The position numbers were made by a program, and so were the translations under genes. Below are positions 3,533 to 63,700 of a DNA stretch of 64,000 bases, piece after piece. Within the stretch, counting starts at the first letter, position 1; each line of letters begins with the position of its first letter. Under the pieces are notes generated by a model. It was not told where the DNA came from, searched no databases, and worked only from the letters and a program-made list of their open reading frames with translations. Origin of the DNA: Dokdonia sp. PRO95 (lineage in GTDB: Bacteria; Bacteroidota; Bacteroidia; Flavobacteriales; Flavobacteriaceae); assembly GCF_000355805.1 (NCBI RefSeq), contig NZ_CM001837.1, positions 532,409 through 596,408 of the forward strand, read 5' to 3'.

Positions 3533-4261
3533 ATGAAAAACAACCCTTTATATATAACTATACTTCTTGTTTTTGTTTACGCTTTCGCGAAAGCGCAAAC
3601 CACAGATCCTTCATATTTAGTTAATGTACAGAAGGCATCACAGTTAGAAATTGACGCATACGATCCGGCAGATTTAGAGATTGGTATGCTGGTTTATAAT
3701 ACAGATGAAAATAGGATTTTTGAATATACAAATAATGGGTTTTTGGAACTTCTTACAGAGAAGAATATATACACTGGATGGTTTATCATCTCTGGCGAAG
3801 GAGTGGTAACAGTAAGCGACATTCCATTTACACCATCACAGGTAACCTTCTCGGCAGCAGCAAATGTGGAGAGTCGGGATATTGATTCTGATAATGGCGT
3901 AGGAGACAATGATAGAGGTATTGACAACTCTTTTGGGTCAATGAAAGGGTTTGCAAGAGATGATGACGGCACAATAACGCAACAAGTGATGTATTCTGGA
4001 GGACACGGAAATTCTATAAATGACAACTCTAGATATGCCAGCAGTAGCAACTGTATAGGTATACGTTATGGTGACCAGAATGGAAGTAGTCTCGGAAAAA
4101 TAGAAGGAGCATTTACATCATTTACTGCAGATGGGTTTACTATTACTGTAAATTATACAGATGGTATAGTGACCGCAAATAGTACTAACCCATTAGTAGA
4201 CGTTCAACCTGGAGATGTAAATAATGAAGCATTACTAGTCATTTTTACGGCATATAAATAA
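3533..4261 (+). CDS. Secreted protein, collagen-free paralogue of the upstream gene
   Basis: A 242-residue protein. The signal peptide ends in A17-F-A-K-A21 followed by Gln22, a good signal peptidase I site. It then carries the same [30 protein letters not shown] module as the gene at 2258 and, directly after it, the same C-terminal domain (PSQVTF, SMKGFARD, YSGGHGNSIN, CIGIRYG). The collagen triplets that separate the two modules in the upstream protein are absent here. It lies 6 bp after the upstream gene and 3 bp before the next. Tandem duplication with gain or loss of the collagen stalk is the simple reading. No enzymatic motif is recognised. Confidence 0.8.
   Translation: MKNNPLYITILLVFVYAFAKAQTTDPSYLVNVQKASQLEIDAYDPADLEIGMLVYNTDENRIFEYTNNGFLELLTEKNIYTGWFIISGEGVVTVSDIPFTPSQVTFSAAANVESRDIDSDNGVGDNDRGIDNSFGSMKGFARDDDGTITQQVMYSGGHGNSINDNSRYASSSNCIGIRYGDQNGSSLGKIEGAFTSFTADGFTITVNYTDGIVTANSTNPLVDVQPGDVNNEALLVIFTAYK
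3580..3595. repeat. Palindrome copy 1 (16 bp)
   Basis: Perfect CGCTTTCGCGAAAGCG. It reads as A17-F-A-K-A21 at the end of the signal peptide of the gene at 3533. Confidence 0.95.
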
Positions 4262-4264
4262 AGT

Positions 4265-4918
4265 ATGAAACAAATATCCCTATATATTACAGCTTGCTTT
4301 TTTTTATTTTTTGCTTTCGCGAAAGCGCAAACATTAAATCCACAATTACTATTAAAATTGAATAATGGTACGACAGCAGAAATAAATAATACGACTGGCG
4401 CAGAAGCCGGTGTTATGGCTTATGACAGTGACCAAAAAATTGCAAAAATTTATGATGGCGCTACATGGCAAGAAATGAGTACACCATCTAGAGGAAGTAT
4501 AATCCTCAATAGAAATGGAGGGTCTGGAATACTTACCACCGCTAATAACACTTACTTTGACATGCCTATTAATGCATCACACATACAAGCAAACGAAGGA
4601 GGTTTATTTACTGTAGTTGGTACAGGCAAAATCAGAATTGAGCAAGATGGAATATATGCAATATCTGCATCTCTATCCACTAGCAATATGCCCATAGGCA
4701 ACACTAAATACATTTTGGCAGCACGCCGTAATAATTCTCTTATAGGATATTTATCTAGAGGCTCTGTCACATTAACGGGCCAAGATTATTGGGGATCATC
4801 CGGCACCATAACGTACGCTTTGAGCACAGGAGATGTTATAAATTTTCAATATGTGATTAACGCTGGAGGATCTAGCCTCAATGCAGTATTCACAAACGCG
4901 TCAATAACGAAATTGTAA
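4265..4918 (+). CDS. Secreted protein with a C1q/TNF-like jelly-roll domain
   Basis: A 217-residue protein with a signal peptide ending A17-F-A-K-A21 before Gln22. Residues about 23-65 are a shorter form of the N-terminal module of the two preceding genes (NPQLLLKLNNGTTAEI, MAYDSDQKIAKIYDGATW). The rest has the alternating strand pattern of the C1q/TNF fold: a DGIYAISASLS segment, then LSTGDVINFQYV near the C-terminus, which match the strand-and-turn positions of C1q-like domains. This fold call rests on pattern only. It sits in the same operon as its neighbours (3-4 bp gaps). Probably a trimeric surface or secreted component alongside the collagen-like protein. Confidence 0.6.
   Translation: MKQISLYITACFFLFFAFAKAQTLNPQLLLKLNNGTTAEINNTTGAEAGVMAYDSDQKIAKIYDGATWQEMSTPSRGSIILNRNGGSGILTTANNTYFDMPINASHIQANEGGLFTVVGTGKIRIEQDGIYAISASLSTSNMPIGNTKYILAARRNNSLIGYLSRGSVTLTGQDYWGSSGTITYALSTGDVINFQYVINAGGSSLNAVFTNASITKL
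4313..4326. repeat. Palindrome copy 2 (14 bp)
   Basis: GCTTTCGCGAAAGC; the left outer base is T, so the symmetry stops at 14 bp. It reads A17-F-A-K-A21, at the same residue numbers as in the preceding gene. Confidence 0.95.
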
Positions 4919-4922
4919 TACA

Positions 4923-6071
4923 ATGAAAAATATATTAATAATAATCATGGCTTGTTGTGGTTTCGCTTTCGCGAAAGCGCAAGACACCGCACATAATTTT
5001 GGTAATGTTCAGATTCATCAAAGTGGATCAATAGGCTTTCATGGTGATCTTGTGAATGACGGAGACTTTGATAATAATTTAGGTCTAGCGGGTTTTTACA
5101 ACCAAGACGAAGAACTATTTATTTTAGGAAACAATAAACCTGTTTTCTTTAACATGGAGGTAGATGTTCCAGAAGATCTCAACTTTGAGGTCTCTGTAGG
5201 TGTTACAAACTTTTTAGATTTTATAAACGGGAGAATCACAACCCCAAGAGAAGACTTAGGAATTAATCTTGACTTTACTAATGATGCAATTTACTTAGGA
5301 GAAAGTGATGACAACCATGTGGACGGTTATGTTACAAATCAAGGTAATCTAGAGTTTGACTTCCCTATAGGTGATGATTTTAAAATACGCCAACTCACAG
5401 TAGTCCCTCTAGATCCTGCTGGGGACGTGTATCAAGCAGCATATTTCTTTGAAGATCCTAATACTCCAAGTACGCTTTCTGGATCTTTTGATAGGGATTC
5501 TTTTCAAAATACATTATCTATTATTGATCCTAATGAATATTGGGATTTAAATGGTACGCTACCAGTACAAGCTAGGCTTACTTGGGATGAAGAAACACAA
5601 GTACCAGTACTTGCAGACGGCATTGAGTCTTTACGAGTTGTGGGCTTCTCTGAAGTTCTAAATAGATGGGTTGACTTAGGAAATACACAGATTACAGGAA
5701 ATGAAACTAATGGCCAGATTACATCTGACATTTTTGAACCAAATGGTTTTTCTGCGCTTACGCTTGGGTCTGTTTTGAGAGGAGGAAGCTCTATAAATGT
5801 TTACACTTTCTTTTCTCCTAATGGTGATGGGATTAATGAAACTTTTGTCATAGAAGGATTAGCTACCAGTCCAGACAATGAACTATTTATTTTTAACAGA
5901 TGGGGTGTAGAAGTTTTCTCGATGAAAAACTACGACAACTCTTTTGATGGAACCTCACAGGGAAGGGCAACTGTGTCTCAAGACGATAAACTGCCAGTGG
6001 GAACTTACTATTATGTACTCAAACTTAAAGATCAAAAAGATCTAGCAGGTGCATTTTATATAAATCGCTAA
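4923..6071 (+). CDS. T9SS cargo protein with type B (gliding motility-associated) C-terminal domain
   Basis: A 382-residue protein with a signal peptide ending A15-F-A-K-A19 before Gln20. The middle region is a beta-rich segment of unknown fold (VQIHQSGSIGFHGDLVNDGDF onward). Residues about 292-382 are a typical type B sorting domain: FFSPNGDGINETF, then ELFIFNRWGVEVF, and PVGTYYYVLKLKD near the end. Such domains direct proteins through the type IX secretion system, whose PorU, PorV and GldJ components are encoded at 38437-45367. Last gene of the surface-protein run. Its specific role outside the cell is unknown. Confidence 0.88.
   Translation: MKNILIIIMACCGFAFAKAQDTAHNFGNVQIHQSGSIGFHGDLVNDGDFDNNLGLAGFYNQDEELFILGNNKPVFFNMEVDVPEDLNFEVSVGVTNFLDFINGRITTPREDLGINLDFTNDAIYLGESDDNHVDGYVTNQGNLEFDFPIGDDFKIRQLTVVPLDPAGDVYQAAYFFEDPNTPSTLSGSFDRDSFQNTLSIIDPNEYWDLNGTLPVQARLTWDEETQVPVLADGIESLRVVGFSEVLNRWVDLGNTQITGNETNGQITSDIFEPNGFSALTLGSVLRGGSSINVYTFFSPNGDGINETFVIEGLATSPDNELFIFNRWGVEVFSMKNYDNSFDGTSQGRATVSQDDKLPVGTYYYVLKLKDQKDLAGAFYINR
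4964..4979. repeat. Palindrome copy 3 (16 bp)
   Basis: Perfect CGCTTTCGCGAAAGCG coding A15-F-A-K-A19 at the signal peptide end of the T9SS cargo gene. It is the third consecutive gene with the repeat in this position. Confidence 0.95.
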
Positions 6072-7385: not shown

Positions 7386-8119
7386 ACAGACGCACATTTT
7401 CAAAATTAACATTACTAGGAGCCGTTGCTGCTTCCCTCCCACTTCCCGCAACGACTTCAATTTTTCAAGGTATTTCTGAAGATGAATTACTTGGTAAAGG
7501 TGCTCCACTTCTTACTAAGACCTCAGCATACCGACTTCGGCCGGAAGCTGCGGTTGCTTATGAAGAGATGAAAAGTGCGGCGCTTAAGGAAGGAATCAAA
7601 TTCCAGGTAGTATCTAGCTATAGAGATTATAACCACCAAAATAGAATCTGGGAACGCAAGTACAAACGCTTTCGCGAAAGCGGACTCAAACCTACTGCGG
7701 CAATTGAAAAAATAATTAAATACTCTACCATCCCTGGAACTTCAAGACATCACTGGGGCACAGATATAGATATTGTAGACGCCACTCCAAAAGTTTCTGG
7801 AGGACTACTCGTACCATCTAAATTTCATGGCAATGGTCCCTTCTGCAAGTTTAAAGAATGGATGGATAAGAACGCAAATACCTACGGCTTTTACTTGGTC
7901 TACACAGATGACCAAAATCGTAAAGGTTTTAACTATGAGCCTTGGCATTACAGTTTTAAAAGCTTATCCCTTAACTATCTTAAGAAATATCAAGAGTTGC
8001 CTATTAAAAACAAATTACAATCGGCTAAACTATTAGGAAGTGAGCATTTTACAGAGGCGTTTATAGATCGCTATCTTCAGGATAATGTAATGGATATTAA
8101 TCCAGCTTTACTCACTTAA
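7382..8119 (+). CDS. M15 family D-alanyl-D-alanine carboxypeptidase (VanY-like)
   Basis: A 245-residue exported peptidase that should trim the terminal D-Ala of peptidoglycan stem peptides. The N-terminus (MNRRTFSKLTLLGAVAASLPLPA) looks like a twin-arginine or Sec signal. The zinc site is visible as SRHHWGTDIDI, matching SxHxxGxAxD, with a second histidine in EPWHYSF; SSYRDYNHQ is the usual family block. The start overlaps the previous stop as ATGA. The 3' end overlaps the convergent TPR gene by 4 bp. A palindrome copy lies inside as R96-F-R-E-S100. Confidence 0.85.
   Translation: MNRRTFSKLTLLGAVAASLPLPATTSIFQGISEDELLGKGAPLLTKTSAYRLRPEAAVAYEEMKSAALKEGIKFQVVSSYRDYNHQNRIWERKYKRFRESGLKPTAAIEKIIKYSTIPGTSRHHWGTDIDIVDATPKVSGGLLVPSKFHGNGPFCKFKEWMDKNANTYGFYLVYTDDQNRKGFNYEPWHYSFKSLSLNYLKKYQELPIKNKLQSAKLLGSEHFTEAFIDRYLQDNVMDINPALLT
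7667..7682. repeat. Palindrome copy 4 (16 bp)
   Basis: Perfect copy in the VanY-like gene, read in the frame Arg-Phe-Arg-Glu-Ser (residues 96-100). It is the only intact copy in this frame. Confidence 0.95.
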
Positions 8120-9078
8120 AGCAACTGGATCTCCTTGCGTTCTAGCAATGCTTCCTTAAAGTCAGAGCGGCTAGCTAAGGCTTTGCCTATCCATTGCTGT
8201 GCTTTTATTTTATCTCCTTTATGCTTGTAAATCTGCGCTAGACGCAAGTAAGCCCAGTCTTTTGGGACTCCGTCTTTGGCTGTATAATTATCAATATATT
8301 TATGTAAACAAGATATTCCTTGATCTAGGCCTATACCGTATTGACCAGCGATTTTTCCAAACTGATAATGCAATCTATTATCTTCCTTATGCTTGCTCTG
8401 AGCAGCCTGCACTGTAGCAAGTGCATCTTCTGGTTTATTGTTTTTTTCGTAATGCTCCTGTAATTTTTGGTAGCAGGTTACAGAACCACCTACTTGAACT
8501 GCCTTTCTATAATTCACCTCTGCATCATTAGGACGATCATTATATTCTGCAATATACCCATGCGCTAGATACCCGTCTACTGGTGATATATTTGCAAGCT
8601 GATCTGCATATTTCATGGCTTTATCTTCACTTCCACCTATAATACTTGGTAACTGGATGTAAAACTCAATAAGCGCCCATCTGGCTTCAATATGTTTTGG
8701 GTCTAGTGAAGCGGCCGTTTCAAACGACTTCTTTATATCACCTATCATGGTCGCCGCTCTCAATTTATTTACCGCTAGCGCTTTCATACCCATCACACCA
8801 CCATATTTATAATGATAGTTTGCATTCTTAGGAGACTGCTCAACTAGTTGCTCATAATATGATATTGCTTCATTCCAGTTTTCGGCATAGCCTTCTATAT
8901 CGCCTAGATATTCGATAGTTTTTGCATGAGTGGGATGCGTAGATAAGTATGTTTTGAAAAATGGCTTTGCTTGTTGATATTGTTCTTTCTTAAAAAGAGT
9001 TTCCGCTTTCGCGAAAGCGGTATCATTTTGCGCTACCACAAAAAGAGGAAAACACAATAAGAGAATCCATTTTATCAT
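8116..9078 (-). CDS. Secreted TPR-repeat protein
   Basis: The ATG at 9078 gives a good signal peptide (MIKWILLLCFPLFVVAQ); a longer frame to 9117 adds an unlikely N-terminus. The mature part, 320 residues, is made of helical tetratricopeptide-like pairs, for example AETLFKKEQYQQAKPFFKTYLSTHP, WNEAISYYEQLVEQSPKNA and WAYLRLAQIYKHKGDKIKAQQW. Such proteins act as periplasmic scaffolds; partners are unknown. The adjacent lipoprotein gene upstream (start 9649) is in the same direction with a 46-bp gap. Confidence 0.8.
   Translation of the reverse strand: MIKWILLLCFPLFVVAQNDTAFAKAETLFKKEQYQQAKPFFKTYLSTHPTHAKTIEYLGDIEGYAENWNEAISYYEQLVEQSPKNANYHYKYGGVMGMKALAVNKLRAATMIGDIKKSFETAASLDPKHIEARWALIEFYIQLPSIIGGSEDKAMKYADQLANISPVDGYLAHGYIAEYNDRPNDAEVNYRKAVQVGGSVTCYQKLQEHYEKNNKPEDALATVQAAQSKHKEDNRLHYQFGKIAGQYGIGLDQGISCLHKYIDNYTAKDGVPKDWAYLRLAQIYKHKGDKIKAQQWIGKALASRSDFKEALLERKEIQLL
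9004..9019. repeat. Palindrome copy 5 (16 bp)
   Basis: Perfect copy in the TPR gene, coding A21-F-A-K-A25 four residues after the predicted signal cleavage. Confidence 0.95.
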
Positions 9079-9124
9079 TTTCAAATTTTTATCAAATATA
9101 TACCAATATGATGCCAAAACTGAT

Positions 9125-12129: not shown

Positions 12130-13293
12130 ATGACAAACTACTTTTCTTCACAGTTTAAACTTGGAATTTTAGGCGGTGGCCAGCTCGGCAAGATGATGCT
12201 TTATGACACTAGAAAATATGATATCCAGACATATGTGCTTGACCCTAGTGATGATGCTCCTAGCAAGATTGCTTGTGATCATTTTGAGCAAGGAAGTCTT
12301 ATGGATTATGACACGGTACTCGCTTTTGGCAAAAAAGTAGATGTACTTACCTTTGAGATAGAAAGTGTAAATATAGATGCCCTTGAAGCACTAGAAAAAG
12401 AAGGGGTAAAAGTGTTTCCGCAGCCATCTGTGTTGCGTAACATACAAGATAAAGGAGTACAAAAAGACTTTTATGCACAACATGATATTCCAACAGCGGG
12501 GTATACAAAGTACGCTTTCGCGAAAGCGGTAAAAGAAAACTTAAACACAGCATCAAGTGATATCGAGTTTCCATTTATCTGGAAATCATGCACGGGAGGA
12601 TATGATGGAAAAGGAGTCTCTGTTGTAAGAACCGCCGAAGATTTAGACCACCTACCTCAAGTACCATGCATCGCCGAAAAAATGATCCCATTTAAAAATG
12701 AGCTTGCAGTAATTGTAGCTCGTAGTGTATCTGGCGAAGTAAAGACATACCCTGTGGTAGAAATGGAATTTCACCCAGAAGCAAACCAAGTGGAGTATGT
12801 AATTTGCCCCGCTCGTATAGATGAGAATGTTGCAAATAAAGCTCGCGCAATAGCAGAGCAGGTTTCAAAAGCATTTGGCCATGTAGGTCTGCTTGCTGTT
12901 GAGATGTTTCAAACAGAAGATGATGAGATTCTTGTAAATGAAGTGGCTCCTAGACCACACAATAGTGGTCATTATAGTATAGAGGGAAGTTTTACAAATC
13001 AGTTTGAGCAACATCTTAGAGCTATTTTAGACTTACCGTTAGGAAACACAGATAGTAAAGTAGCATCTGTAATGGTAAATCTAGTAGGTGATGAGGGACA
13101 TACAGGCGCAGTAAAATATAAGAACATAGAACAAATTATGGCAATGGATGGTGTAACACCACACATTTATGGCAAGAAGGAAACAAGACCTTTCCGTAAG
13201 ATGGGACACGTTACCATTGTAAATCACAATCTTGTAAAGGCAAGACAAGTAGCTCAAGAGGTTAAAGAAAACATACGTGTAATTGCACAATAA
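12130..13293 (+). CDS. purK: 5-(carboxyamino)imidazole ribonucleotide synthase PurK
   Basis: A 387-residue ATP-grasp enzyme that carboxylates aminoimidazole ribonucleotide with ATP and bicarbonate in purine synthesis. The N-terminus LGILGGGQLGKMM is diagnostic, as are FIWKSCTGGYDGKG (ATP-grasp loop) and VNEVAPRPHNSGHYSIEG. It is followed after 13 bp by purE, the next enzyme. A palindrome copy codes A129-F-A-K-A133 in a variable linker before the ATP-grasp loop. Confidence 0.95.
   Translation: MTNYFSSQFKLGILGGGQLGKMMLYDTRKYDIQTYVLDPSDDAPSKIACDHFEQGSLMDYDTVLAFGKKVDVLTFEIESVNIDALEALEKEGVKVFPQPSVLRNIQDKGVQKDFYAQHDIPTAGYTKYAFAKAVKENLNTASSDIEFPFIWKSCTGGYDGKGVSVVRTAEDLDHLPQVPCIAEKMIPFKNELAVIVARSVSGEVKTYPVVEMEFHPEANQVEYVICPARIDENVANKARAIAEQVSKAFGHVGLLAVEMFQTEDDEILVNEVAPRPHNSGHYSIEGSFTNQFEQHLRAILDLPLGNTDSKVASVMVNLVGDEGHTGAVKYKNIEQIMAMDGVTPHIYGKKETRPFRKMGHVTIVNHNLVKARQVAQEVKENIRVIAQ
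12513..12528. repeat. Palindrome copy 6 (16 bp)
   Basis: Perfect copy in purK, reading A129-F-A-K-A133. Confidence 0.95.
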
Positions 13294-16087: not shown

Positions 16088-16115
16088 CAAAAGGAGTTCA
16101 TTATATGGGCTCCTT
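16088..16115. terminator. Terminator-like hairpin between convergent genes
   Basis: AAAGGAG and CTCCTTT pair across a 13-nt loop and are followed by a T-rich stretch, placed after the M3 peptidase stop and overlapping the last codons of the opposing glycosyltransferase gene. Confidence 0.5.
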
Positions 16116-17327
16116 TTTATTTTTCTCCTCAATCCACTTAGACATAAACTTGGTACTACGCATCGAGTGATGTAATAACATCTGCCCTGTGAAATTATTG
16201 AGTCGGCTGGTTTCTAGATTAGCCTTAAGAGTATTGATTCTTGTTATGAAATCTTCTTCGAAGTCTTCTTTTTGAAAATTTTTATTGACAATTTCTTTTC
16301 CTTGCTCCTGAGCTTTGCTCCAAACTAGCTCATCACTATATAAGGTAATCGCCTCTCTTGCAAAAGTCGCATCATCATCAGTTATCGCACCACTCCACGG
16401 CAAGCCTTGTTGCATTCCTTCTGCACCTATTGTTGTGGTCACAGATGGGGTTCCACACTGCATCGCATCGATAAACTTTCCTTTTAAACCTGCCCCAAAA
16501 CGTAGCGGAGCAAGTAATACACGTGCATTTAATATCACTTCATGCGCATCTTCTGCTCTTCCTTTTACAATAAATCCATCCTTCCTATTATGAAGTTGCA
16601 TCACTTTTTCTGACGGATAAGCTCCATAGATATGTAACTCTGCAGCAGGAATTGCTTTCCTAATTAATGGCCAGATATTCTTTTTGAGCGCTAGCGTAGC
16701 ATCCCAGTTAGGGAGATGTATAAAATTACCTATCGCTATAAAATGTTGCCGCTCATCAAAAGGCTTAAAATTGGCTGGGGCTTTTGGTAACAAAAAAGGT
16801 ACGTAATGTAAGAGTGAGCTAGGTACTTTAAAAAAGTCTTGCAATAATGCAATCTCTACTTGAGAAATCATTAACGTGAGATCACATCTATATATGGACG
16901 CTATTTCTCTTTTGGCAACATCAGACACAAGATCTTGTTCCCTGAAATCTCTATCCTCTTTTACTGCTTGCTGGCGTGCTTTTCTCAGGCAATGTAAATC
17001 TTCGGTGTCTAGTATTTTAATGGCTTCTGGACATTGTTCTGCGATGCGCCATCCAAATTGCTCTTCGGCCATAAATCGGTCAAAAAGGACGATATTGGGT
17101 TGGTACGCTTTCGCGAAAGCGTTAAAAGATTCATCATTTACACGTATCTCTTGGGTAGCAATGCCGAGTGTTTCTAAATCAAAAGCATTTTCTGAAACTC
17201 CCGCCGTGCTAGCATAAGTAATCTTCCAACCCTTTGCTAGCATTATATCTAATAGCTGCAACATCCTACTTCCCGCTGCCGAAGAGGTAGGCTCAACCCA
17301 TACTGTAGAGATCACTAATACGTTCAT
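16101..17327 (-). CDS. Glycosyltransferase (GT-B, family 4-like)
   Basis: A 408-residue protein with the two Rossmann-like halves of GT-B enzymes: MNVLVISTVWVEPTSSAAGSRM at the N-terminus and, in the second half, FIAIGNFIHLPNWDA, AELHIYGAYPSEKV and the donor-site region LLAPLRFGAGLKGKFIDAMQCGTPSVTT, where E/D-x7-E-like family 4 features are partly kept. No signal peptide. It stands alone on the minus strand, divergent from the GbsR-type regulator. Acceptor and donor are unknown. Palindrome copy 7 codes residues 70-74. Confidence 0.8.
   Translation of the reverse strand: MNVLVISTVWVEPTSSAAGSRMLQLLDIMLAKGWKITYASTAGVSENAFDLETLGIATQEIRVNDESFNAFAKAYQPNIVLFDRFMAEEQFGWRIAEQCPEAIKILDTEDLHCLRKARQQAVKEDRDFREQDLVSDVAKREIASIYRCDLTLMISQVEIALLQDFFKVPSSLLHYVPFLLPKAPANFKPFDERQHFIAIGNFIHLPNWDATLALKKNIWPLIRKAIPAAELHIYGAYPSEKVMQLHNRKDGFIVKGRAEDAHEVILNARVLLAPLRFGAGLKGKFIDAMQCGTPSVTTTIGAEGMQQGLPWSGAITDDDATFAREAITLYSDELVWSKAQEQGKEIVNKNFQKEDFEEDFITRINTLKANLETSRLNNFTGQMLLHHSMRSTKFMSKWIEEKNKKEPI
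17106..17121. repeat. Palindrome copy 7 (16 bp)
   Basis: Perfect copy in the glycosyltransferase gene, coding A70-F-A-K-A74. Confidence 0.95.
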
Positions 17328-18383: not shown

Positions 18384-19291
18384 AAAAATTAATTATATCA
18401 GGTGGGAGCGGCTTTTTAGGGTCGCTCTTAACTCATTATTTTGGGAATAGCTTTGAGGAGATTGTTTTGCTTTCGCGAAAGCAAAAACCACAGCATAACA
18501 ACGTGCGAACAGTATTATGGGACGCAAAAAATTTCTCTGGCTGGGAGCGAGAATTTGAAGACGCAGATGTAGTTATTAATATGGCTGGACGCTCTGTAGA
18601 CTGTCGTTATAACAAGAAAAACAAAGACCTCATCATGAACTCGCGTGTAGATACTACCACGATTATAGGTAAGGCAATTGCACAATGCAAAAATCCTCCT
18701 TCCACTTGGCTCAATTCATCTACAGCAACCATATATCGTCACTCGCTCGATAAGGAAATGACCGAACGTACTGGAGAAATAGGCGCTGGGTTTTCTGTGA
18801 GTGTGGCAAAAGCATGGGAAGATGCATTATTCTCAAGCACGACTCCACAAACGCGTAAGATTGCGTTGCGCACATCTATTGTGCTTGGCAAAAATGGCGG
18901 AGCATTGCAACCCATTAAAAAAATCACCCAACTAGGACTAGGGGGAAAACAAGGTGACGGGAAGCAGAAATTCAGTTGGATTCATGAAGAAGACTTTTTA
19001 CGAAGTCTTGACTTTCTAATCAATCATTCCCATATAAAAGGACCAATTAATATAGTGGCACCAAAGCCCACCACAAATGCACATCTTATGTCATTGATGC
19101 GTGATAATCTTAGAATACCTTTTGGCATCCCTTCTCCTAAACCACTGCTGGAAGTGGGCGCCTTTGTTATAAGAACAGAAACCGAATTATTACTTAAAAG
19201 CCGAAATGTAATCCCAGAACGATTACTAGAAGAGGGTTTTACATTTAAGTACGACCAACTAGACAAGGCTTTAAAAGATTTATTAATATGA
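18380..19291 (+). CDS. TIGR01777 family NAD(P)-dependent epimerase/dehydratase
   Basis: A 303-residue extended SDR protein of the YfcH/TIGR01777 group. The nucleotide-binding loop is ISGGSGFLGSLL near the N-terminus; VINMAGRSVDCRY and LRTSIVLGKNGGALQ are group hallmarks, and the C-terminal DUF1731 region ends in FTFKYDQLDKALKDL. The substrate of the family is not established. Palindrome copy 8 codes L31-S-R-K34, right after the second beta strand, where an arginine usually contacts the NADP phosphate. It overlaps both neighbours by 4 bp. Confidence 0.88.
   Translation: MKKLIISGGSGFLGSLLTHYFGNSFEEIVLLSRKQKPQHNNVRTVLWDAKNFSGWEREFEDADVVINMAGRSVDCRYNKKNKDLIMNSRVDTTTIIGKAIAQCKNPPSTWLNSSTATIYRHSLDKEMTERTGEIGAGFSVSVAKAWEDALFSSTTPQTRKIALRTSIVLGKNGGALQPIKKITQLGLGGKQGDGKQKFSWIHEEDFLRSLDFLINHSHIKGPINIVAPKPTTNAHLMSLMRDNLRIPFGIPSPKPLLEVGAFVIRTETELLLKSRNVIPERLLEEGFTFKYDQLDKALKDLLI
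18469..18482. repeat. Palindrome copy 8 (14 bp)
   Basis: GCTTTCGCGAAAGC, read in the frame Leu-Ser-Arg-Lys (residues 31-34 of the epimerase). Confidence 0.95.
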
Positions 19292-21622: not shown

Positions 21623-21646
21623 TTGCACCTAAAAATATTCAATACG

Positions 21647-29988: not shown

Positions 29989-30008
29989 TACGCTTTCGCG
30001 AAAGCGTA
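29989..30008. repeat. Palindrome copy 12, extended to 20 bp, intergenic
   Basis: The core plus two extra base pairs on each side, 4 bp after the mlaF stop. One of three copies outside coding sequence; no T-run follows, so it does not look like a terminator. Confidence 0.95.
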
Positions 30009-37843: not shown

Positions 37844-37857
37844 GCTTTCGCGAAAGC
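37844..37857. repeat. Palindrome copy 15 (14 bp), intergenic
   Basis: GCTTTCGCGAAAGC in the gap between cdd and pdhA, about 130 bp upstream of the pdhA start. Confidence 0.95.
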
Positions 37858-38405: not shown

Positions 38406-38436
38406 AAGCTTTTTTTGCTTTCGCAAATATCATGTT

Positions 38437-45439: not shown

Positions 45440-46713
45440 ATGACCATTGCAGAGCTACACTTCCATTTTTTAAACAGTAACGGTGTTTGTACTGACACCA
45501 GAACTTTACAAGAAAATCAGATTTACATCTCTTTGAAGGGAGACAATTTTAATGGTAACAAGTTTGCAAAACAAGCATTACTAGATGGCGCTAGACTCGC
45601 AGTGATAGATGAAAAAGAATATGAAGCTGATTATACTGTGCTGGTAGACGATGCTCTTAAAACATTACAACAACTAGCAAATTACCATCGTAAATACCTT
45701 AACCTACCTATAATAGGATTAACTGGAAGCAATGGCAAAACCACTACAAAGGAGCTTATAAACTCAGTACTTTCTGAAAAATATGTGACTGTAGCTACTA
45801 AAGGAAATCTTAACAACCACATAGGAGTGCCACTTACACTCTTATCTATGGATACTACTACAGATTTAGGAATTGTAGAGATGGGCGCAAACCATCAAGG
45901 AGAAATTGCCATGCTATGCGAGATTGCCCAACCTAACTTTGGCTATATCACAAACTTTGGAAAGGCACACCTCGAAGGTTTTGGAGGGTTTGAAGGTGTT
46001 ATAAAAGGCAAAAGTGAGCTTTATAATTATCTTAGAGATCACGAGGAAATGGCTTTTATAAACGACACAGACCAACTGCAAGTGGAAAAATCTAATGGCA
46101 TTACTTTACAAACATTTGGCTCTACAGAAAGCAACTTCCCTATCAGTTTAGTAGATGGATCTGAGAACCTCAAACTATTGTTTAAGGAAACCACTATCAA
46201 TAGCCAACTCATAGGTATCTATAACTATACAAATATTGCTGTTGCTATTGCAATGGGCACCTATTTTGACCTATCTATTGATCAGGTTAAGTCAGGAATT
46301 GAAAAATACATACCTGCAAATAATCGCTCTCAAATCATAAATAAAGATAATTATAGTATTATTCTCGACGCCTACAATGCAAACCCTACGAGCATGGTGG
46401 CAGCTTTAGAAAATTTAAAGGCTACAAACACCACAACCATTGCATTCATAGGTAATATGTTTGAAGTAGGTGCCACCTCAAAAGTCGAGCATCAAGCTAT
46501 GTTAGACTTAGCTAGTAATCTTAAGATTGACCAAGTATATGCCATAGTACAGATTTTGGCGCTTCGGCCCCTCATTTGAACCAAGAGGTTTATGAGGATT
46601 ATAACGCTTTCGCGAAAGCGTACTCAAACAAAATTCCAACTGGCGCAACGGTACTTATAAAAGGTTCTAGAGGCATGAAAATGGAGCGAATATTAAATCT
46701 CTTAGAAAATTAA
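45440..46713 (+). pseudogene. murF: UDP-N-acetylmuramoyl-tripeptide--D-alanyl-D-alanine ligase MurF, frameshifted
   Basis: A Mur ligase adding D-Ala-D-Ala to the UDP-MurNAc tripeptide. The N-terminal substrate domain (VCTDTRTLQENQIYISLKGDNFNGNKF), ATP loop GLTGSNGKTTTKELI, NHIGVPLTLL and YNANPTSMVAAL are intact. The frame runs to DQVYAIVQILALRPLI and stops at about 46577. In another frame the expected end continues: TDFGASAPHLNQEVYEDYN, then the palindrome as AFAKA, then ATVLIKGSRGMKMERILNLLEN and TAA at 46711-46713. Adding one G at 46547 (giving AIGTDFGAS) restores about 424 residues. Since MurF is essential, a sequencing error or recoding is more likely than true loss. Confidence 0.88.
46604..46621. 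repeat. Palindrome copy 17 (18 bp)
   Basis: The core plus one extra pair on each side, in the 3' part of murF downstream of the frameshift; read as Ala-Phe-Ala-Lys-Ala in the corrected frame. Confidence 0.95.
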
Positions 46714-46823
46714 CTCCAAAGATTCTCAATAGAGATAACTTTTGATTTTCTAAATATTAACTCTAGATCAATTAAAGATGTAATTCTTAACTTTAGGCGA
46801 CTTCATTAATGAAGTTTCTCTCT

Positions 46824-49800
46824 ATGGAAAAGAAATATATTATTGCATTTGATCAAGGCACAACGAGTACTAGAGCTATCATATTTGACCATCAAGGAAC
46901 CATAAAAAACATTGCCCAAAAGGAACTTAAACAACATTATCCGCAACACGGCTGGGTAGAACACAATCCTATAGAGATTTTTGAAGCACAGCAAGCTACC
47001 TTCAAAGAGGTTATCGAAACGTCTGATATATCTATAGACGAGATTGCTGCGATAGGTATTACTAACCAGCGAGAGACTACCGTAGTCTGGGATAAGAATA
47101 CTGGAAAACCTATATATAATGCTATTGTATGGCTCGATAAGCGTACTAAAAATATCTGTGAGCAATTAAAATCTCAAGATCTAGAAGAATATGTGAATAA
47201 GAATACGGGACTCATTATAGACTCCTACTTCTCAGGAACTAAGGTCAAATGGATCTTAGATAATGTAGATGACGCTTTCGCGAAAGCGCAACAAGGCGAC
47301 TTACTTTTTGGAACTATAGATACTTGGCTTATTTGGAAATTTACCAATGGTACTGTACATGCAACAGATCACTCTAATGCCAGCCGAACGCTACTCTACA
47401 ATATTATAGACCTCAAATGGGATGAAAAGATGCTTAAGGCATTAAACATCCCAGCGTCTATGTTACCTAAGGTTCAACATAGCGCCTCAAATTTTGGAAA
47501 TATAGTACTAGATGGTCACAGCATTCCTATTTGTGGAGTTTCTGGAGATCAACAAGCGTCGCTCTTTGGTCAGGGAGGTTACAAATCTGGAATAGCTAAA
47601 AACACCTACGGTACCGGTTGTTTCCTACTCATGAATACTGGAAAAAAACCTGTTACTTCAAAAAATGGATTGCTTACTACTTTATGTGCCAGCTTACCTA
47701 GTGGTAAAGTTAAATATGCTCTAGAAGGTTCCATTTTTGCGGGAGGCGCATCTGTACAATGGTTACGGGATAAACTTGACCTCATAGATCATGCAAGAGA
47801 CACAGAAGATATCTGTATGAATACGGCAGCTACAGATGATTTATATGTAGTTCCTGCTTTTGCAGGGTTAGGAGCTCCTTACTGGGACATGGATGCAAAA
47901 GGAGCAATTTATGGACTAACACTAGACTCAGGAAAAGACGATATTATAAAAGCTACCGTAGATTCGATTGCCTATCAAACACGAGATGTTCTCGATGCAA
48001 TGATTGAAGATTCTGGCAAGCAAATGAAAGCGCTAAGAGTAGATGGTGGAGCCACTGCAAATAATTATCTCATGCAATTTCAATCAGACATTCTTAACAT
48101 TGCTGTAGATCGTCCAGAGATGCTAGAAGTCACTGCATTGGGAGCTGCATTTTTAGCTGGAATTCAAGTGGGTATTTGGAACAAAAAAGATATTTCTAAA
48201 ATACGTCAAGTAGATTCCATTTTTGAACCAACGATTACTGAGTATGAGCGCAACAAGAAATACACAGGCTGGAAAAATGCCGTAGCACGCACAAAGAGCA
48301 CTACAATTCAGATGCTCGCCACACAAGAAGAAACACCTATGCGCTTCTCTGTGCTAGACAGGCAGCGCCAGATAAGCCGTGCTCAAAAAGAAAAATTTGA
48401 TCTTATTGTTATAGGAGGTGGAGTTACCGGAGCAGGGATTGCACTTGATGCGTCTTCTCGTGGTATGAATGTATGTCTTATAGAAAAGAATGATTTTGCT
48501 TCTGGAACAAGTAATAAATCTACAAAGCTTATTCACGGTGGACTGCGTTACCTTAAGCAAATGGAAATAGGACTTGTTCAAGAATCAGGTAGTGAAAGAG
48601 CCATAGTACACACCCTAGCTCCTCACCTTGTTGTACCAGAAAAAATGCTACTTCCACTTATAGAAGGTGGTACCTACGGAAAAATGATGACGGCAATAGG
48701 CTTAAAAGTCTATGACTTTCTTGCCAACGTAGAAGGCGATGATAAACGTAAAATGCTTAGCTCAGAAGAAACTGCTTCTAGAGAACCTTTACTTAACAAA
48801 AATCAACTAGTGGGTGGTGGTTATTATGCAGAGTATCGCACAGATGATGCACGACTTACCGTAGAGTTATTAAAAAAGGCTGCCAGCTACGGCGCTACTA
48901 TTATTAACTACTGCGAGATGAAAACCTTTAAGTACGATGAGCAAGGAAAGATAAAAAGCTTACAATGTTATGATCACAATACACAAAGGAGCTTCAAATT
49001 AAAATCACAGCACTATGTGTCTGCTGCAGGACCATGGGTGGATCTTTTAAGGAAAAAAGACCACTCCATGAATAATAAGTATTTACATCTCACAAAAGGG
49101 GTTCACATTGTTTTTTCTAGAGAGCGTTTTCCATTAACTCAATCTATTTATTTTGATGTACCAGATGGTCGTATGATTTTTGCCATCCCTCGCGGCAGGT
49201 CTACATACGTAGGAACAACAGACACCAACTATAACGGGAACCTCAACCGCGTAGTCGCCACTCAAGATGATGCAATCTACCTACTAGATGCGACCAATAA
49301 TATGTTTCCAAGTGTTAATCTCACTATAGACGATATAGAGTCTAACTGGGCTGGACTAAGACCACTTATACATGAAGATGGCAAGGACCCTTCTGAATTG
49401 AGTCGTAAAGATGAAATTTTTGTATCTGAAACAGGATTGATTTCTATTGCTGGAGGTAAACTTACTGGATATCGTAAAATGGCGCAAAGGGTTATAGATC
49501 GCGTACTTAAAGATGTACCAGAAAAGAAGAAAGCCCATCTGGTAAAATCGCATACTGAAAAAATACCTCTTACTTCTGAGCCTTTAAATAATACAGCAGA
49601 AGTTGATATTTACCAACAAGAGATTAAAAAGCGCCTTGAAGAGGTAGGTATAGTAGATGAGTATCAAAGTTGGTACCTAGCAACTACATACGGGAAGCAG
49701 AGTGACACCATCATTGATAAGATGAGTTATTTCTTAAATGAAAATCCAGAAGAGCGCTTAATACGCGCAGAGGTATGGTACAGCATACATCATGAAATGA

Positions 49801-55395: not shown

Positions 55396-55409
55396 GCTTT
55401 CGCGAAAGC
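55396..55409. repeat. Palindrome copy 19 (14 bp), intergenic
   Basis: GCTTTCGCGAAAGC, 5 bp after the stop of the secreted-protein gene and about 120 bp before the TetR gene. Confidence 0.95.
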
Positions 55410-59269: not shown

Positions 59270-60669
59270 GGTTACTTATAAAATATACAATCCTTGTGTT
59301 GTGTTACGCTTTCGCGAAAGCGGGACTAGCTCAAACACCTGTACTTTCTCCACAAAATATTTCTTTTGAGGAATACTTAGGATATGTAAAGCAACATCAT
59401 CCATTAATCAAACAAGCCGAATTAGTATTAAGCACAGGAGAAGCTAATCTACTTAAAGCACGAGGAGGTTTTGATCCAAAAATTGAGGTAGACTATGATC
59501 GTAAGAAATTTAAAGACACCGAATATTTTGATCAGCTTAACGCTACTTTTAAAATTCCTACTTGGTACGGAATTGAGCTAAAAGGAAGTTTTGAAGAAAA
59601 CACAGGTGAGTTTCTCAACCCCAACCTTACCGTTCCCGAAGATGGATTATATAGCGCTGGAGTTTCATTTGCGCTGGCACAAGGTCTTCTTATTAATGAA
59701 CGCATGGCTACCTTAAAGAAAGCACGCTTTTTTGAACAGCAAACCATCGCAGATCGTGACTTACTCGTAAACAACTTAATTTATGAGGCTAGCTTAGCAT
59801 ATTTTGACTGGGTAGAAGCAGAAAATGAAAAAGCTATTTACGGTACTTTTTTAGAGAATGCTACCACCAGGCTAGACGCCGTAACAAGAAGCGTAGCAGA
59901 AGGTGACAAAGCGGCTATAGACATTACAGAAGCTAGAATCACTGCTCAAACAAGACGTCTTGATCTAGAAGCTGCCTCGCTTAAGGCTCAAAAGGCACGC
60001 CTAGTTGCGAGTAATTTTTTATGGATAGATGGTATTCCATTAGAAATACAAGAAACGGTATATCCAGAAAAACCTGAGCTTGCAGTACTGGACGCCTCTC
60101 TATTATTAGTGGGCATTACAGATACCTCGGTTTTTTTAAATAATCATCCTAAGCTTAAAAGTCTTGACGCAAAGATTGATGGACTAGAAGTAGATCGATT
60201 TTTAAAGAAAAACAAGTTGCTTCCTAAGGTAAACTTGCAATACAATTTTCTATCACCAGATGCAGATCGATTAGATGGTTTTAATACGGCAAATTACAAG
60301 GCTTTTGTAGATGTGAGCTTTCCTATTTTCTTGCGTAAGGAACGCGGAGATCTAAATCTTGCTAAGCTTAAAGTACAAGACGCCCAGTTTGAACGTACAG
60401 CCACTTCCCTTGCTATCAAAAACAAGCTTGACGCCACAGAAGCCGAGATTACATCCCTTTTAGAACAAAATAACCTCATCACTGAGATTGTGGTAGATTA
60501 TGAAGCCCTTGTAAAAGCTGAGGAGCGTAAATTTTTTCTAGGAGAAAGTTCACTATTCCTCATTAACTCCCGCGAGCAAAAGTTGATAGACGCAAGACTT
60601 AAAGCAAATGTCCTTTCTGTAAAGGAACTTACGGCAAAGGCAAAGTTGTATAATGCGGCAGGGCTATAA
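59266..60669 (+). CDS. TolC family outer membrane channel protein
   Basis: A 467-residue outer membrane efflux protein with a signal peptide containing A15-F-A-K-A19 and probably cut at GLA before Gln. Two long helical repeats typical of TolC are visible (KQAELVLSTGEANLLKARGGFDPKIEVDY; ELTAKAKLYNAAG at the end), with SVSFALAQGLLINERMATLKKAR and DVSFPIFLRKERGDLNLAKLKVQDA at the equivalent positions of each half. It overlaps the HlyD-like stop as ATGA and completes the tripartite exporter. Confidence 0.9.
   Translation: MRLLIKYTILVLCYAFAKAGLAQTPVLSPQNISFEEYLGYVKQHHPLIKQAELVLSTGEANLLKARGGFDPKIEVDYDRKKFKDTEYFDQLNATFKIPTWYGIELKGSFEENTGEFLNPNLTVPEDGLYSAGVSFALAQGLLINERMATLKKARFFEQQTIADRDLLVNNLIYEASLAYFDWVEAENEKAIYGTFLENATTRLDAVTRSVAEGDKAAIDITEARITAQTRRLDLEAASLKAQKARLVASNFLWIDGIPLEIQETVYPEKPELAVLDASLLLVGITDTSVFLNNHPKLKSLDAKIDGLEVDRFLKKNKLLPKVNLQYNFLSPDADRLDGFNTANYKAFVDVSFPIFLRKERGDLNLAKLKVQDAQFERTATSLAIKNKLDATEAEITSLLEQNNLITEIVVDYEALVKAEERKFFLGESSLFLINSREQKLIDARLKANVLSVKELTAKAKLYNAAGL
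59307..59322. repeat. Palindrome copy 20 (16 bp)
   Basis: Perfect copy in the signal peptide of the TolC-like gene, coding A15-F-A-K-A19. Confidence 0.95.
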
Positions 60670-60711
60670 ATCCATCATGACATTGCGATAACGACTTATT
60701 ATTAAGCATAA

Positions 60712-60746
60712 AAAAACCGTAATTCTATATAAGAATTACGGTTTTT
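60712..60746. terminator. Bidirectional terminator
   Basis: A 15-bp perfect stem including ACCGTAATTCT / AGAATTACGGT, flanked by A and T runs, with a 5-nt loop, between the TolC-like gene and the convergent permease/peptidase gene. Confidence 0.88.
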
Positions 60747-60767
60747 ACTTTTAAAAATCATCAGAAG

Positions 60768-63700
60768 TTATTCTTCCTTGTCGCTTCCGTTTTCTTTTAC
60801 TTTCTTACGGTTATCACTACCACGACGGTCTATCAATTTATTAAAAGGATCTATTCCAGCTTCTACTGGTTTCTCATCAACTATCACATCAAAACCATTG
60901 TTAATGTCGCTCACTTTCACTTTCTTTAGATACAGTACATTCTCTGCTCCTGTTTCCTCATCCTCTTCGCCAAAAACCCCTAGCTCAATATAATCTGCTA
61001 GTGGTAAGGATGCAATGGCATCCTCCTCACCTTCTGGAGTAAATGAAAGACTATCGCCCGCGATGGATTTATATTCTTTTTTTCCTTTCTTTTTAGAACG
61101 ATACTTACTTATAATCGCATCTATATGTACAGCATAACTACCATCTGGCAATTCTGTATAAGTGGCATCTTCTACTTTATTATCATAAAGTGTGATGGTC
61201 TCAAACATATCAGTAACTAGATATTTAAGCGAGTCTGGCGTCACCGCTTTTATATCTGCCACAAACTCTGTAGCTACTGGATAAGGACGTCCTTTAAATT
61301 GATACTTCTGGGCAAAGCGTTTTGCTACACCGTTAAAGACATCTTCTCCTAAGTAATCACTCATAGCATATAAAACTAATGACCCCTTTTGGTAATGAAT
61401 ATACTGTTGGTTTTCATTATACATTAATGGCTGCTCCTTAATCTGCTCACTAGTTCTACCTGTCAAGTATCCATCCATCGCGTCTTTTAAGAAACGGCGC
61501 ATCTGGTTTTTACCATAAGTTTTCTCAAGCACCTTGAGCGAACTATACTCAGACATACTTTCTGACAGTAATGTTGCTCCTTTAGCCTGTGCTCCTATTA
61601 CTTGGTGAGCCCACCACTGGTGTGCTAGCTCATGAGCAGTTATTGCCAGCGGATAATCTACTGCATCTTGATCATCATCATCTACATCTGCTACAAAACC
61701 TACTCCTTCACTAAAAGGGATTGTATTTGCAAAGGCCTGTGCAAAGCTTCCATAATCTTTAGGGAACTCTATGATACGCACTTGCTTATGCTGGTAAGGT
61801 GTATAATTCTCATTATAATAAGCGAGGCCCTTTTTCATACCATTCATCATACGATCAAGGTTATAAGTGTGACCAGGATTGTAATAAATCTCAAGATTAA
61901 TCCCCTGGTATTCTTCTCGCATCACTTCATATTCTGCACTTAAGAAAGAATAGAAGTTGAGCATTTTTGAATCCATTTTATAATGAAAATACTTTCTTCC
62001 ATCTTCTTCCCACTCCTTAATGAGATAGCCTGGCGCAATCGCTATTTGCTCCGGAGAAGTACTCAATGTAGCCTCAAAGTCTATCCAGTCACTATAACCT
62101 CCTATATAACTACGATCTCTTGCTCCAGGGGCATCTGGATCTGGTAAGCGGTCCTTAGGTGCTAGATCATACTTTTCACGTAGTTGTGTGTTTCTTAATT
62201 CAAAATTATCATTGTAACCTATAGAAGGAAACATACCATAATTTACAAAGGTTCCATTGGTAGAAATAGGCGACTTATCATCTAGAAATTTATTCTCCTC
62301 ATTATGCATGGTGAACTTAAACACTAAAGTATCTCCAGGCTGCATAGGCTTACTAAAAGCATACATTTTATAATAATAATCTTCGTTATCATAAACCACT
62401 TCTGCATCTCTGTCTAGCGTGATTTCTGTAGGGTAATCTGTGAGACTCACATGTAATGTATCTATAGCAACACTATCCTTATTAATCATGGTAAATGTTG
62501 CTCCTGCTTTAAAGTCTCTAGTTTTTGGATACATATCCATAAACGTATTTACAGCTACGAGTCTAGGTTGTGGTATTCCTGCATACTTTCCTAAATCTCT
62601 TTCGGCTTGCACACGTAATTCTTCACGTTCTTTTCCTGTGAGTAATTCATTCTCCACGTTATTTACATACCAAGAGTAGCTACCTATACTTAAAAATATC
62701 ACTAGAGAAACTACTGCCGTTGCTATGATGGGTGTAGATAATCTCGCTTTCGCGAAAGCGATACGACCTTTTACATTAGTCCCCATACCGCGTCTGTAAA
62801 ATAAAATAGCCGCCATTAAAAGAATAACACCAAATGAGATCCAATAGACCCTAAACGTATAGAAACGAGGTAATACAGAACCGTAACCATCAAAATCTGA
62901 TGGACTAGGTGTACCTCCAGAATTAAAATCATAGATAGCCTGCTCTACTCCAATTGCATTTTGCAATAATGGAATCGCAACAGCAAGCACTAATAAAGTT
63001 ACAAGGCCAAGCCATTTATTTTTAATCAATGTGTGCACAAGAAGCGCCATCAAAATCCACGGAATATACTTCCAGATATTGATTAAAAAAGCTTGGAATA
63101 CATAAAGATCTATCTGGTAATCATAAAAACCTTTGGCCGTTTGAAATGCAAGACCACAAAGGATAAGTACCACTTGCAGAAAACCTGTCATAAGTAATAG
63201 CGATATTCCTTTTGATACTAGAAACACCCAGTCCTTTGTAGGCGTTACATCGACTATCTGGTTAAGATGAGCCGCCCTAGAGCGATCCATTAAAAAACCG
63301 GCATATAAGTGAATAAGTAAAAATGAAAATAATATCACATATGCAGACGGCTCTGCAAGCATAGTCCACGTTTTAGGCAAAATAGCCGTGTTAAAAATGA
63401 GCTGAGAAAAACTCATCATTACAATGGTAAGTACAATGGCTAAGAAAGTTATAATTATGAATGGCCAGCCCGTAATGATATATTTAGTGTCACTTTTAAC
63501 CAATAACCACAATGTTTTTAACTGCCCAACGAGAGAGAAATCTGTAGATACTGCTGGCATTTCAATGTTTCTTACTTCACTAAAGTTTTTCTTAGTTGCT
63601 CTTACCGTCTTTTTCTTGAAAAGACGAATGGTCATTGCATGTTGAGAAAAATTAAAGCGTGCAATAATCCCAAATAAAATTGCAAATGAAATCCCAGCCC

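What the first reader, a model, noticed from the sequence alone, without database searches (positions are those of the whole stretch)
3580..62761. A highly iterated 14-16 bp palindrome, CGCTTTCGCGAAAGCG, about once every 3 kb
I count 21 perfect copies (at least GCTTTCGCGAAAGC): 3580, 4313, 4964, 7667, 9004, 12513, 17106, 18469, 20752, 22945, 26552, 29989, 32131, 33865, 37844, 43069, 46604, 47273, 55396, 59307, 62744. Decayed copies lie at 36426, 41979 and 57971, and left halves at 38417 and 51793. A given 14-mer is expected about 0.0002 times in 64 kb. Eighteen copies are coding, on both strands and in unrelated genes. None of the three frames gives a stop on either strand. The only other TCGCGA I noticed is at 19938, so nearly all TCGCGA sites sit inside this motif. 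Parallels are HIP1 in cyanobacteria, uptake sequences and parS/Noc-type sites; none has this sequence to my knowledge. It could be a binding site for a chromosome-organising, repair or modification protein.
Basis: partly seen in the sequence, partly recalled or inferred. Interest (0 to 1): 0.93.

Follow-up and report, generated by a model that had tools for sequence, protein, structure and literature searches.

The report
Iterated 14-base palindrome in Dokdonia genomes
Some marine Flavobacteriaceae repeat one exact 14-letter DNA palindrome hundreds of times, evenly spaced and largely kept in place across species, as a genome-wide mark whose most likely use is recognising their own DNA during uptake or repair.

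Summary
The window holds 21 exact GCTTTCGCGAAAGC. The whole genome holds 794, the reversed control 0. All 17 other genomes held of the genus have 369-905; kin with names place it in Dokdonia. Of 397 genomes drawn from the family, only three genera carry hundreds; on a PurK tree they do not group together. Outside the family no searched genome has more than one copy.

New here: each flank is G/T-rich and C-poor for about 20 bp. Single-mismatch copies are rare (13 against 121 exact). Sites closer than 1 kb are scarce. Most sites followed are kept at orthologous places or move within one intergenic interval. In genes they mostly encode AFAKA, often at signal-peptide ends. Phage contigs carry them too.

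TCGCGA avoidance, two methyltransferase families, extra ParB copies and terminators do not explain it. Best reading: a palindromic DNA-uptake or self-recognition sequence (0.42); a chromosome-organising or repair-protein site is close behind (0.33). No binding protein was found. The 14-mer was in no paper of the library searched.

The parts
3581..3594 (.). exact copy 1, coding (3533-4261 +), by eye a signal-peptide end ...vyAFAKAQ
4313..4326 (.). exact copy 2, coding (4265-4918 +), by eye a signal-peptide end ...ffAFAKAQ
4965..4978 (.). exact copy 3, coding (4923-6071 +, T9SS type B sorting-domain protein), by eye a signal-peptide end ...gfAFAKAQ
7668..7681 (.). exact copy 4, coding (7382-8119 +), frame RFRES
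9005..9018 (.). exact copy 5, coding (8116-9117 -, TPR-like by sub-cut-off NCBIfam hits), AFAKAE
12514..12527 (.). exact copy 6, coding (12130-13293 +, PurK), in a loop of variable length
17107..17120 (.). exact copy 7, coding (16101-17327 -), AFAKAY
18469..18482 (.). exact copy 8, coding (18380-19291 +), frame LSRK
20760..20773 (.). exact copy 9, coding (20662-21516 -), frame LSRK
22946..22959 (.). exact copy 10, coding (21620-23062 +, N-terminal part of gcvP), AFAKAY
26553..26566 (.). exact copy 11, coding (26406-27257 +); identical in 13 of 13 aligned genomes of the genus
29992..30005 (.). exact copy 12, intergenic between convergent genes; exact in 5 of 7 aligned genomes, in the other two 14 and 24 bp away; in G017 a copy lies in the unaligned gap here
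32132..32145 (.). exact copy 13, coding (31564-32649 -); identical in 10 of 11 aligned genomes
33865..33878. exact copy 14, coding (33287-33967 -); the least conserved of the five followed: exact in 6 of 14 (one search prints 7 because it overlooks a one-base insertion in G001)
37844..37857 (.). exact copy 15, intergenic; exact in 6 of 10 aligned genomes, 29-35 bp away in three more; four further genomes have a copy in the unaligned gap here
43070..43083 (.). exact copy 16, coding (39682-43491 -, peptidase C25), AFAKAQ
46606..46619 (.). exact copy 17, intergenic
47274..47287 (.). exact copy 18, coding (46809-50003 +, FGGY kinase domains joined to a FAD-dependent oxidoreductase)
55396..55409 (.). 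exact copy 19, intergenic
59308..59321 (.). exact copy 20, coding (59266-60669 +), by eye a signal-peptide end ...cyAFAKAG
62746..62759 (.). exact copy 21, coding (60768-63998 -), AFAKAR
41980..41993 (.). decayed copy, 2 mismatches
36427..36440 (.). possible decayed copy, 3 mismatches (chance level 1.8 per window for up to 3 mismatches)

Best explanation
The palindrome is the core of a self-recognition signal for natural transformation: an unidentified surface or periplasmic DNA receptor of these bacteria binds the 14-16 bp palindrome plus G/T-rich arms (about 54 bp in all) on DNA outside the cell and starts its uptake. DNA of the own group carries a site every 4 kb or so, so most fragments of several kilobases are accepted and foreign DNA mostly is not. 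Imported fragments recombine with the chromosome, which restores damaged sites and slowly adds sites in tolerant places (intergenic DNA, signal peptides, variable loops). Shown: over-representation, exactness, flank profile, even spacing, conservation, placement in genes, restriction to three genera among those searched, presence in phage contigs. Inferred: uptake, the receptor, and transformation as the force that keeps the sites. Natural transformation of Dokdonia was not tested here, and I saw no paper on it.
For: (1) A conserved core with longer, weaker flanks, as in the H. influenzae USS (core plus AT-rich flanks, PMC7811141 passages). (2) Exact copies far exceed single-mismatch copies (121 to 13 in 464 kb; 58 to 3; 37 to 11); PMC1939737 reports 92- and 82-fold drops in over-representation between 0 and 1 mismatch for the two known uptake sequences (passages). 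(3) Diminishing returns at short range: gaps under 1 kb 2 against 20.6 expected, CV 0.67 against 0.99, in the first 100 listed sites. (4) Copy number barely follows genome size (r 0.26 in 12 genomes of 2.9-5.5 Mb), as if accessory DNA were poor in it; USS are denser in core genes (PMC6776037 passages). (5) Phage contigs carry it with host-type flanks; phages that lysogenise Pasteurellaceae accumulate USS (PMC6776037 passages). (6) The order has natural transformation without pilus homologues (Riemerella, PMC8459023 passages and section 19), and R. columbina prefers its own DNA (PMC7965970 section 16). (7) ComEC is in 13 of 13 motif genomes tested, and so is a DUF5689 protein, the domain of a Riemerella gene essential for transformation.
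Against: The uptake sequences known to me are non-palindromic. No receptor was found: the DUF5689 lipoprotein is in 31 of 32 genomes with and without the motif, and its tree needs 4 changes of the motif label; ComEC is in 27 of 28. Points 3, 4 and the conservation fit a chromosome-binding protein as well. In the loci followed in 17 genomes only one copy was seen at a place without a window counterpart, less turnover than a drive might give. One phage recorded from a Persicivirga (Nonlabens) host has no copy, but whether that host carries the motif is unknown. The R. columbina authors' own word count (7-10 bases) lists only A/T-rich words.
Confidence: 0.42

Rival explanations
1. A chromosome-organising or repair protein (a homodimer or a symmetric complex) binds the palindrome inside the cell and needs one site every few kilobases, for example as loop anchor, loading site or topology mark.
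For: Two-fold symmetry of core and flanks over about 54 bp; even spacing; no uneven spread over the chromosome in 20 sampled stretches (2-7 per 20 kb); strong positional conservation.
Against: No candidate: ParB is present as one ordinary chromosomal copy in motif and non-motif genomes alike. Copy number not rising with genome size and copies in phage contigs are not predicted. The same exact 14-mer in three genera that do not group together on PurK needs transfer of the protein or many losses.
Confidence: 0.33
2. A two-way recombination signal, working like Chi: a resection enzyme arriving from either side recognises it, and the G/T-rich 5' flank becomes the 3'-ended single strand on which RecA loads.
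For: The G/T-rich, C-poor arm lies on both sides on the strand that reads 5' to 3' into the motif, the strand a Chi-type enzyme would leave (recalled); phage contigs carry the motif.
Against: Chi sites known to me are short (5-8 bases), asymmetric and read as single strand; a 14-16 base palindrome could fold into a hairpin (-2.1 to -4.3 kcal/mol as DNA, though no more stable than many shuffles). RecBCD/AddAB was not compared here.
Confidence: 0.12
3. A HIP1-like by-product of DNA methylation and methyl-directed repair.
For: A palindrome repeated through the genome and restricted to certain taxa, as HIP1 (PMC4390886, abstract and first part of section 3.4).
Against: C5 (PF00145) methyltransferases are in 5 of 12 Dokdonia, 2 of 3 g11, 0 of 1 g219 and 7 of 16 others; N6/N4 (PF01555) above cut-off in 0 of 12, 1 of 3, 1 of 1 and 4 of 16. 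TCGCGA outside the motif is at expectation. A 14-16 bp core with 20-bp arms is far longer than methyltransferase sites known to me. Other methyltransferase families were not tested.
Confidence: 0.06
4. A mobile or selfish repeat (REP or MITE-like) or a set of transcription terminators.
For: Hundreds of identical palindromes; outside ORFs about 4.4-fold enriched in G000 and 5-fold in g11, but hardly in g219 (4 of 37).
Against: Beyond about 20-30 bp the flanks show no shared composition; copies stay at orthologous places; even spacing; in-frame use in genes. The side after the hairpin is A-rich on both strands, the opposite of a terminator's T-run.
Confidence: 0.03

Closest known systems
DNA uptake sequences (USS of Pasteurellaceae, DUS of Neisseriaceae)
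   Same: Hundreds of exact copies throughout the genome, taxon-restricted, strong drop from exact to mismatched copies, extended flanks, presence in phages of the group (literature passages).
   Different: Perfect 14-16 bp palindrome with symmetric arms; a different phylum, whose known transformable members lack pilus homologues (PMC8459023 passages); lower density, 0.13-0.27 per kb against about one per kb for USS; uptake not shown.
HIP1 (GCGATCGC) and alternate HIPs of cyanobacteria
   Same: Highly iterated palindrome throughout the chromosome, restricted to certain taxa.
   Different: 14-16 bp, not 8; symmetric base-composition arms; no tracking methyltransferase among two families tested; rare single mismatches.
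parS / Noc-binding sites
   Same: 16-bp palindromes read by a dimer (recalled).
   Different: About 800 evenly spread sites and no motif-specific ParB paralogue; the sequence and half-site spacing differ (recalled).
Chi sites
   Same: Genome-wide, exact, G/T-rich surroundings (recalled).
   Different: Palindromic and about twice as long; no orientation.

Membership tests
DNA uptake sequence | Preferential uptake of DNA carrying it by competent cells | not testable with these tools
   needs an uptake or transformation assay
DNA uptake sequence | Strong genomic over-representation with exact copies dominating | tested here: met
   794 against 0 reversed controls; 121 exact to 13 single-mismatch in 464 kb
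DNA uptake sequence | Extended weaker consensus beside the core | tested here: met
   C at -1, then about 20 bp G/T-rich and C-poor, in three genera, weaker in g219
DNA uptake sequence | A specific receptor present where the sequence is | tested here: not met
   not met for the one candidate tried: DUF5689 in 31 of 32 genomes, tree not tracking; other candidates not tested
DNA uptake sequence | Host has DNA-uptake genes | tested here: inconclusive
   ComEC in 27 of 28 genomes, all 13 motif genomes included; says nothing on specificity
HIP1 / HIP | Short palindrome (HIP1: 8 bases) whose inner sequence is recognised by a resident methyltransferase | tested here: not met
   14-16 bp core; PF00145 and PF01555 do not track; other families not tested
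HIP1 / HIP | Iterated palindrome throughout the chromosome | tested here: met
parS / Noc site | Read by a ParB-family protein | tested here: inconclusive
   one ordinary ParB per genome in all 28; a second, 599-616 aa open frame in 4 genomes and a shorter one with a stop inside in G047, not following the motif; binding not tested
parS / Noc site | Few to tens of sites, placed with respect to the origin | tested here: not met
   794 sites, 2-7 in each of 20 sampled 20-kb stretches
Chi site | Modulates the resident RecBCD/AddAB enzyme | not tested
   no assay and no family search made
REP/MITE or terminator | Homologous flanks or mobility; T-run after the hairpin | tested here: not met

The most novel reading that the evidence does not exclude
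The first palindromic DNA self-recognition sequence for transformation, in a phylum where none is known to me, shared letter for letter by three Flavobacteriaceae genera that do not group together on the one tree made, and read by an uptake machine without pili; the bases are kept by selection even inside signal peptides, which have been moulded to AFAKA-Q to hold it.
Probability: 0.35. Interest if true: 0.9.

Novelty: new variant of a known kind. Interest (0 to 1): 0.82.

Why it matters
It is one of the longest exact words known to me that a bacterial chromosome repeats hundreds of times. Its sharp limits (three genera among the hundreds searched) and its conservation make the search for the reader protein a concrete task: one bait, one pull-down. 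If it is an uptake sequence, it opens the poorly known Flavobacteria uptake machine to direct test and adds a third, independent case to the two families on which ideas about uptake specificity rest. If it is a chromosome-organising site, it is a new kind of evenly spaced genome mark.

Tried and rejected
Restriction avoidance of TCGCGA: rejected. In g11, GCGAAA and CGAAAG are depleted, but so are many other CG-containing words there, so I drew nothing from it.

C5 and N6/N4 methyltransferases as cause: not supported. ParB paralogue: not supported.

Riemerella competence pair as specificity factor: the DUF5689 tree (30 of the 31 genomes with the gene; G027 had no locus) needs 4 changes of the motif label and puts G011 (Dokdonia) beside G254 (g219) with 99/92 support, away from other Dokdonia. 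The tree of the neighbouring C-terminal outer-membrane fragment (29 of 30 rows, one dropped for length) needs 2 changes, and the motif genomes do not form one side of a branch.

CTTCGGAAA as a 'dialect': enriched in other genera, but the core is an 8-9 base degenerate word with many single mismatches (259 to 81 in 200 kb of G029) and no long arms there, and one copy in PurK is kept by its protein. I do not claim it as the same system.

Large gaps as mobile islands: the two gaps fetched hold ORFs that I did not annotate, two of them over 1600 aa; not pursued.

d(GCGAAAGC) mini-hairpin idea (recalled): the folding program gives no structure for it alone; dropped.

Literature: the exact 14-mer in 0 papers; TTTCGCGAAA in 10, judged unrelated from the listing; 'Dokdonia' with 'palindrom' in 5, judged unrelated from the listing. 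Searches were wider searches, seen as listings. Only this open-licence library was searched. From the papers cited I read abstracts, passages or single sections, none in full; for PMC8022716 one passage, which added nothing.

Window ORFs were searched only in part (26 of the 54 ORFs).
Full report
What is there. The window has 21 exact copies of GCTTTCGCGAAAGC, 17 in ORFs and 4 between genes. It lies at 532409-596408 of a single 3,305,093-bp contig that has 794 copies; the same word read backwards occurs 0 times. From base composition I reckon about 0.005 expected copies in the genome (GC 0.376).

Who has it. All 17 other genomes held of the genus have 369-905 copies. The genus is Dokdonia by named kin: the PurK search gave Dokdonia pacifica, other Dokdonia and one MAG labelled Cytophagaceae as best hits (L001-L004); these four carry 2-5 copies while the 76 other loci have no exact copy; the PurK of two handles, G010 and G013, is identical to that of named Dokdonia loci, and the labelled MAG groups with them. 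Of 397 genomes drawn from the family, hundreds of copies occur only in Dokdonia (g1), in g11 (G027 578, G305 664, G457 609) and in g219 (G254 408). All others have 0-19. On a PurK tree g11 lies far off and g219 does not join Dokdonia; this is one gene, with long branches for G254 and g11, not a species tree. Among 395 genomes drawn from the phylum, those outside the family have at most 1; 47 other members of the order had 0.

Low counts elsewhere are often clusters. In genera with a few copies these often lie within tens of kilobases, and a 933-bp spacing recurs in five genomes of five genera (G142, G151, G165, G278, G224). In L205 the copies lie in an AcrB-family transporter gene, in the outer-membrane efflux gene next to it (two copies 933 bp apart) and in a metal P-type ATPase gene; in L208 one of three lies in a fused transporter-efflux gene, in L212 they lie in a DUF3570 and a DsbD-like gene. 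I read them as DNA passed on from motif-bearing donors, which suggests that the word travels with genes; donors were not traced.

The extended site. Averaged over both sides of 121 sites in 464 kb, position -1 is C in 87%, then for about 20 bp the strand reading into the motif is G/T-rich and poor in C (about 6% at 5-12 bp, background 19%), fading by 20-30 bp. The same is seen in g11 (58 sites in 220 kb) and more weakly in g219 (37 sites in 240 kb), in coding and in intergenic sites and on both sides of the motif relative to the gene (only 4 intergenic sites in g219). So the recognised object is about 54 bp with two-fold symmetry.

Exactness. Exact to single-mismatch copies: 121 to 13 (G000), 58 to 3 (G305), 37 to 11 (G254); six of the 13 in G000 are C to T at position 2, folded to one half.

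Placement. In G000 53 of 121 sites are outside ORFs, though ORFs cover 90% of the bases; in g11 26 of 58 with 91% covered; in g219 only 4 of 37 with 93% covered. ORFs were called crudely. In frame 0 the word reads AFAKA (44 of 68 coding sites in G000, 20 of 33 in g219, 15 of 32 in g11); 25 of 68 in G000, 3 of 33 and 7 of 32 in the other two lie in the first 45 residues; in G000 about nine of these are by eye at the end of a signal peptide, and Q follows AFAKA in 13 of 44. No signal-peptide predictor was run. In PurK the word sits in a loop of variable length.

Spacing. Among the first 100 listed sites of G000 the gap CV is 0.67 against 0.99 for random placement (0 of 20,000 simulations as low), and 2 gaps are under 1 kb against 20.6 expected. 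The listed parts of three other Dokdonia and the window agree (P 0.021, 0.0002, 0.037, 0.011). Counts in the 20 sampled 20-kb stretches vary less than Poisson (P 0.006). A second copy close by seems to be of little use.

Conservation. In the 14.2-kb query stretch with its flanks, five window sites could be followed in 17 genomes, three of them at 90-92% identity and fourteen at 72-78%. In those fourteen, 1.6-6.1% of control 14-mers are identical. Exact at the orthologous place: 26553 in 13 of 13 genomes aligned there, 32132 in 10 of 11, 29992 in 5 of 7, 37844 in 6 of 10, 33865 in 6 of 14 (one search prints 7 for 33865 because it overlooks a one-base insertion in G001). G005 and G007 keep none at the exact place (0 of 3 and 0 of 1). 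At the two intergenic places five genomes have the motif 14-35 bp away instead. The loci fetched hold 53 copies (some loci overlap); 6 lie outside aligned blocks of 400 bp or more, of which 4 fall in the gap around 37844, 1 in the gap around 29992, and 1 (G004, L288:10781, between window 24497 and 24719) at a place without a window site. So the motif is mostly kept in place, or kept within the same intergenic interval, with one place gained or lost as a whole. This is what selection for a site in the neighbourhood would give; 33865 fits it least.

Copy number and genome size: r 0.26 over 12 genomes of 2.9-5.5 Mb (sizes as rounded).

Phages. Of 133 sites in these, 53 lie in contigs under 45% GC; many of these have the host-type flanks, others do not, and in high-GC contigs one and the same flank recurs 14 times. 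Contigs with host-type flanks include L190 (portal, major head and tape-measure genes, 2 copies in 13.3 kb) and L115 (integrase and tape-measure genes, 2 copies in 14.0 kb); L166, with ORFs of matching lengths, has 3 in 12.1 kb. The portal of L190 is closest to a Cellulophaga phage among the phage records (35% identity). The sample is conditioned on having the word. A phage recorded from Persicivirga (Nonlabens), with no integrase annotated, has none.

What it is not. TCGCGA is not avoided elsewhere. C5 and N6/N4 methyltransferase families do not follow the motif. ParB is ordinary. It is not a terminator: the strand after the hairpin is A-rich. It is not a repeat element, given orthologous positions and flanks without shared composition beyond the arms.

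How it most likely works. Three readings remain. Uptake or self-recognition (0.42) fits flanks, exactness, diminishing returns, taxon limits, passage with genes, phage copies and the known self-preferring transformation without pilus homologues in Riemerella (PMC8459023, passages and section 19; PMC7965970, passages and section 16). A chromosome-binding protein (0.33) fits symmetry, spacing and conservation at least as well. A two-way recombination signal (0.12) fits the strand of the G/T-rich arms. None is shown. The reader protein is unknown, and the best-placed candidate, the DUF5689 lipoprotein, does not follow the motif.

Novelty. I know of no such word; the 14-mer is in no paper of the library. 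It is a new variant of the class 'highly iterated genome word', longer and more symmetric than HIP1 or uptake sequences.

Noticed in passing
whole-genome counts; L377-L391 (G029, G056): A second over-represented word, CTTCGGAAA (core CTTC[CG]GAA), in other Flavobacteriaceae: G029 921 against 91 reversed controls, G056 613/76, G024 494/130, G044 493/91, G062 425/80, but below its control in all 18 Dokdonia and in the one g11 genome of that search. Possibly a different genome word with a similar role.
   Followed up: partly
G047: The one genome of 28 without ComEC is also the one of 32 without the DUF5689 gene, which fits a shared role of the two in DNA uptake.
   Followed up: no
window 21620-24497: gcvP is split into two overlapping ORFs in different frames (21620-23062 and 23028-24497), together covering the model from end to end: a frameshift, real or a sequencing error.
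   Followed up: no
window 2258-3526: A collagen-repeat protein (Pfam Collagen) between an ORF without Pfam or NCBIfam hit and three motif-bearing genes whose starts look like signal peptides, the last with a T9SS sorting domain.
   Followed up: no
L205 (annotated), L206, L209, L210, L218, L220 (by equal ORF length and flanks): A metal-efflux type cassette with the motif at the same places in a 405-aa outer-membrane efflux gene in several genera: a spread island.
   Followed up: partly
L343:4547-6649 (G000 C1 2994546-2996633): Two adjacent C5 methyltransferase genes followed by a 944-aa ORF: perhaps a restriction-modification system, without any motif in the 12 kb fetched.
   Followed up: no
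L364 and L367: The DUF5689 lipoprotein of G254 (g219) groups with that of G011 (Dokdonia) at 99/92 support, away from other Dokdonia: possibly gene exchange between two motif-bearing genera.
   Followed up: no
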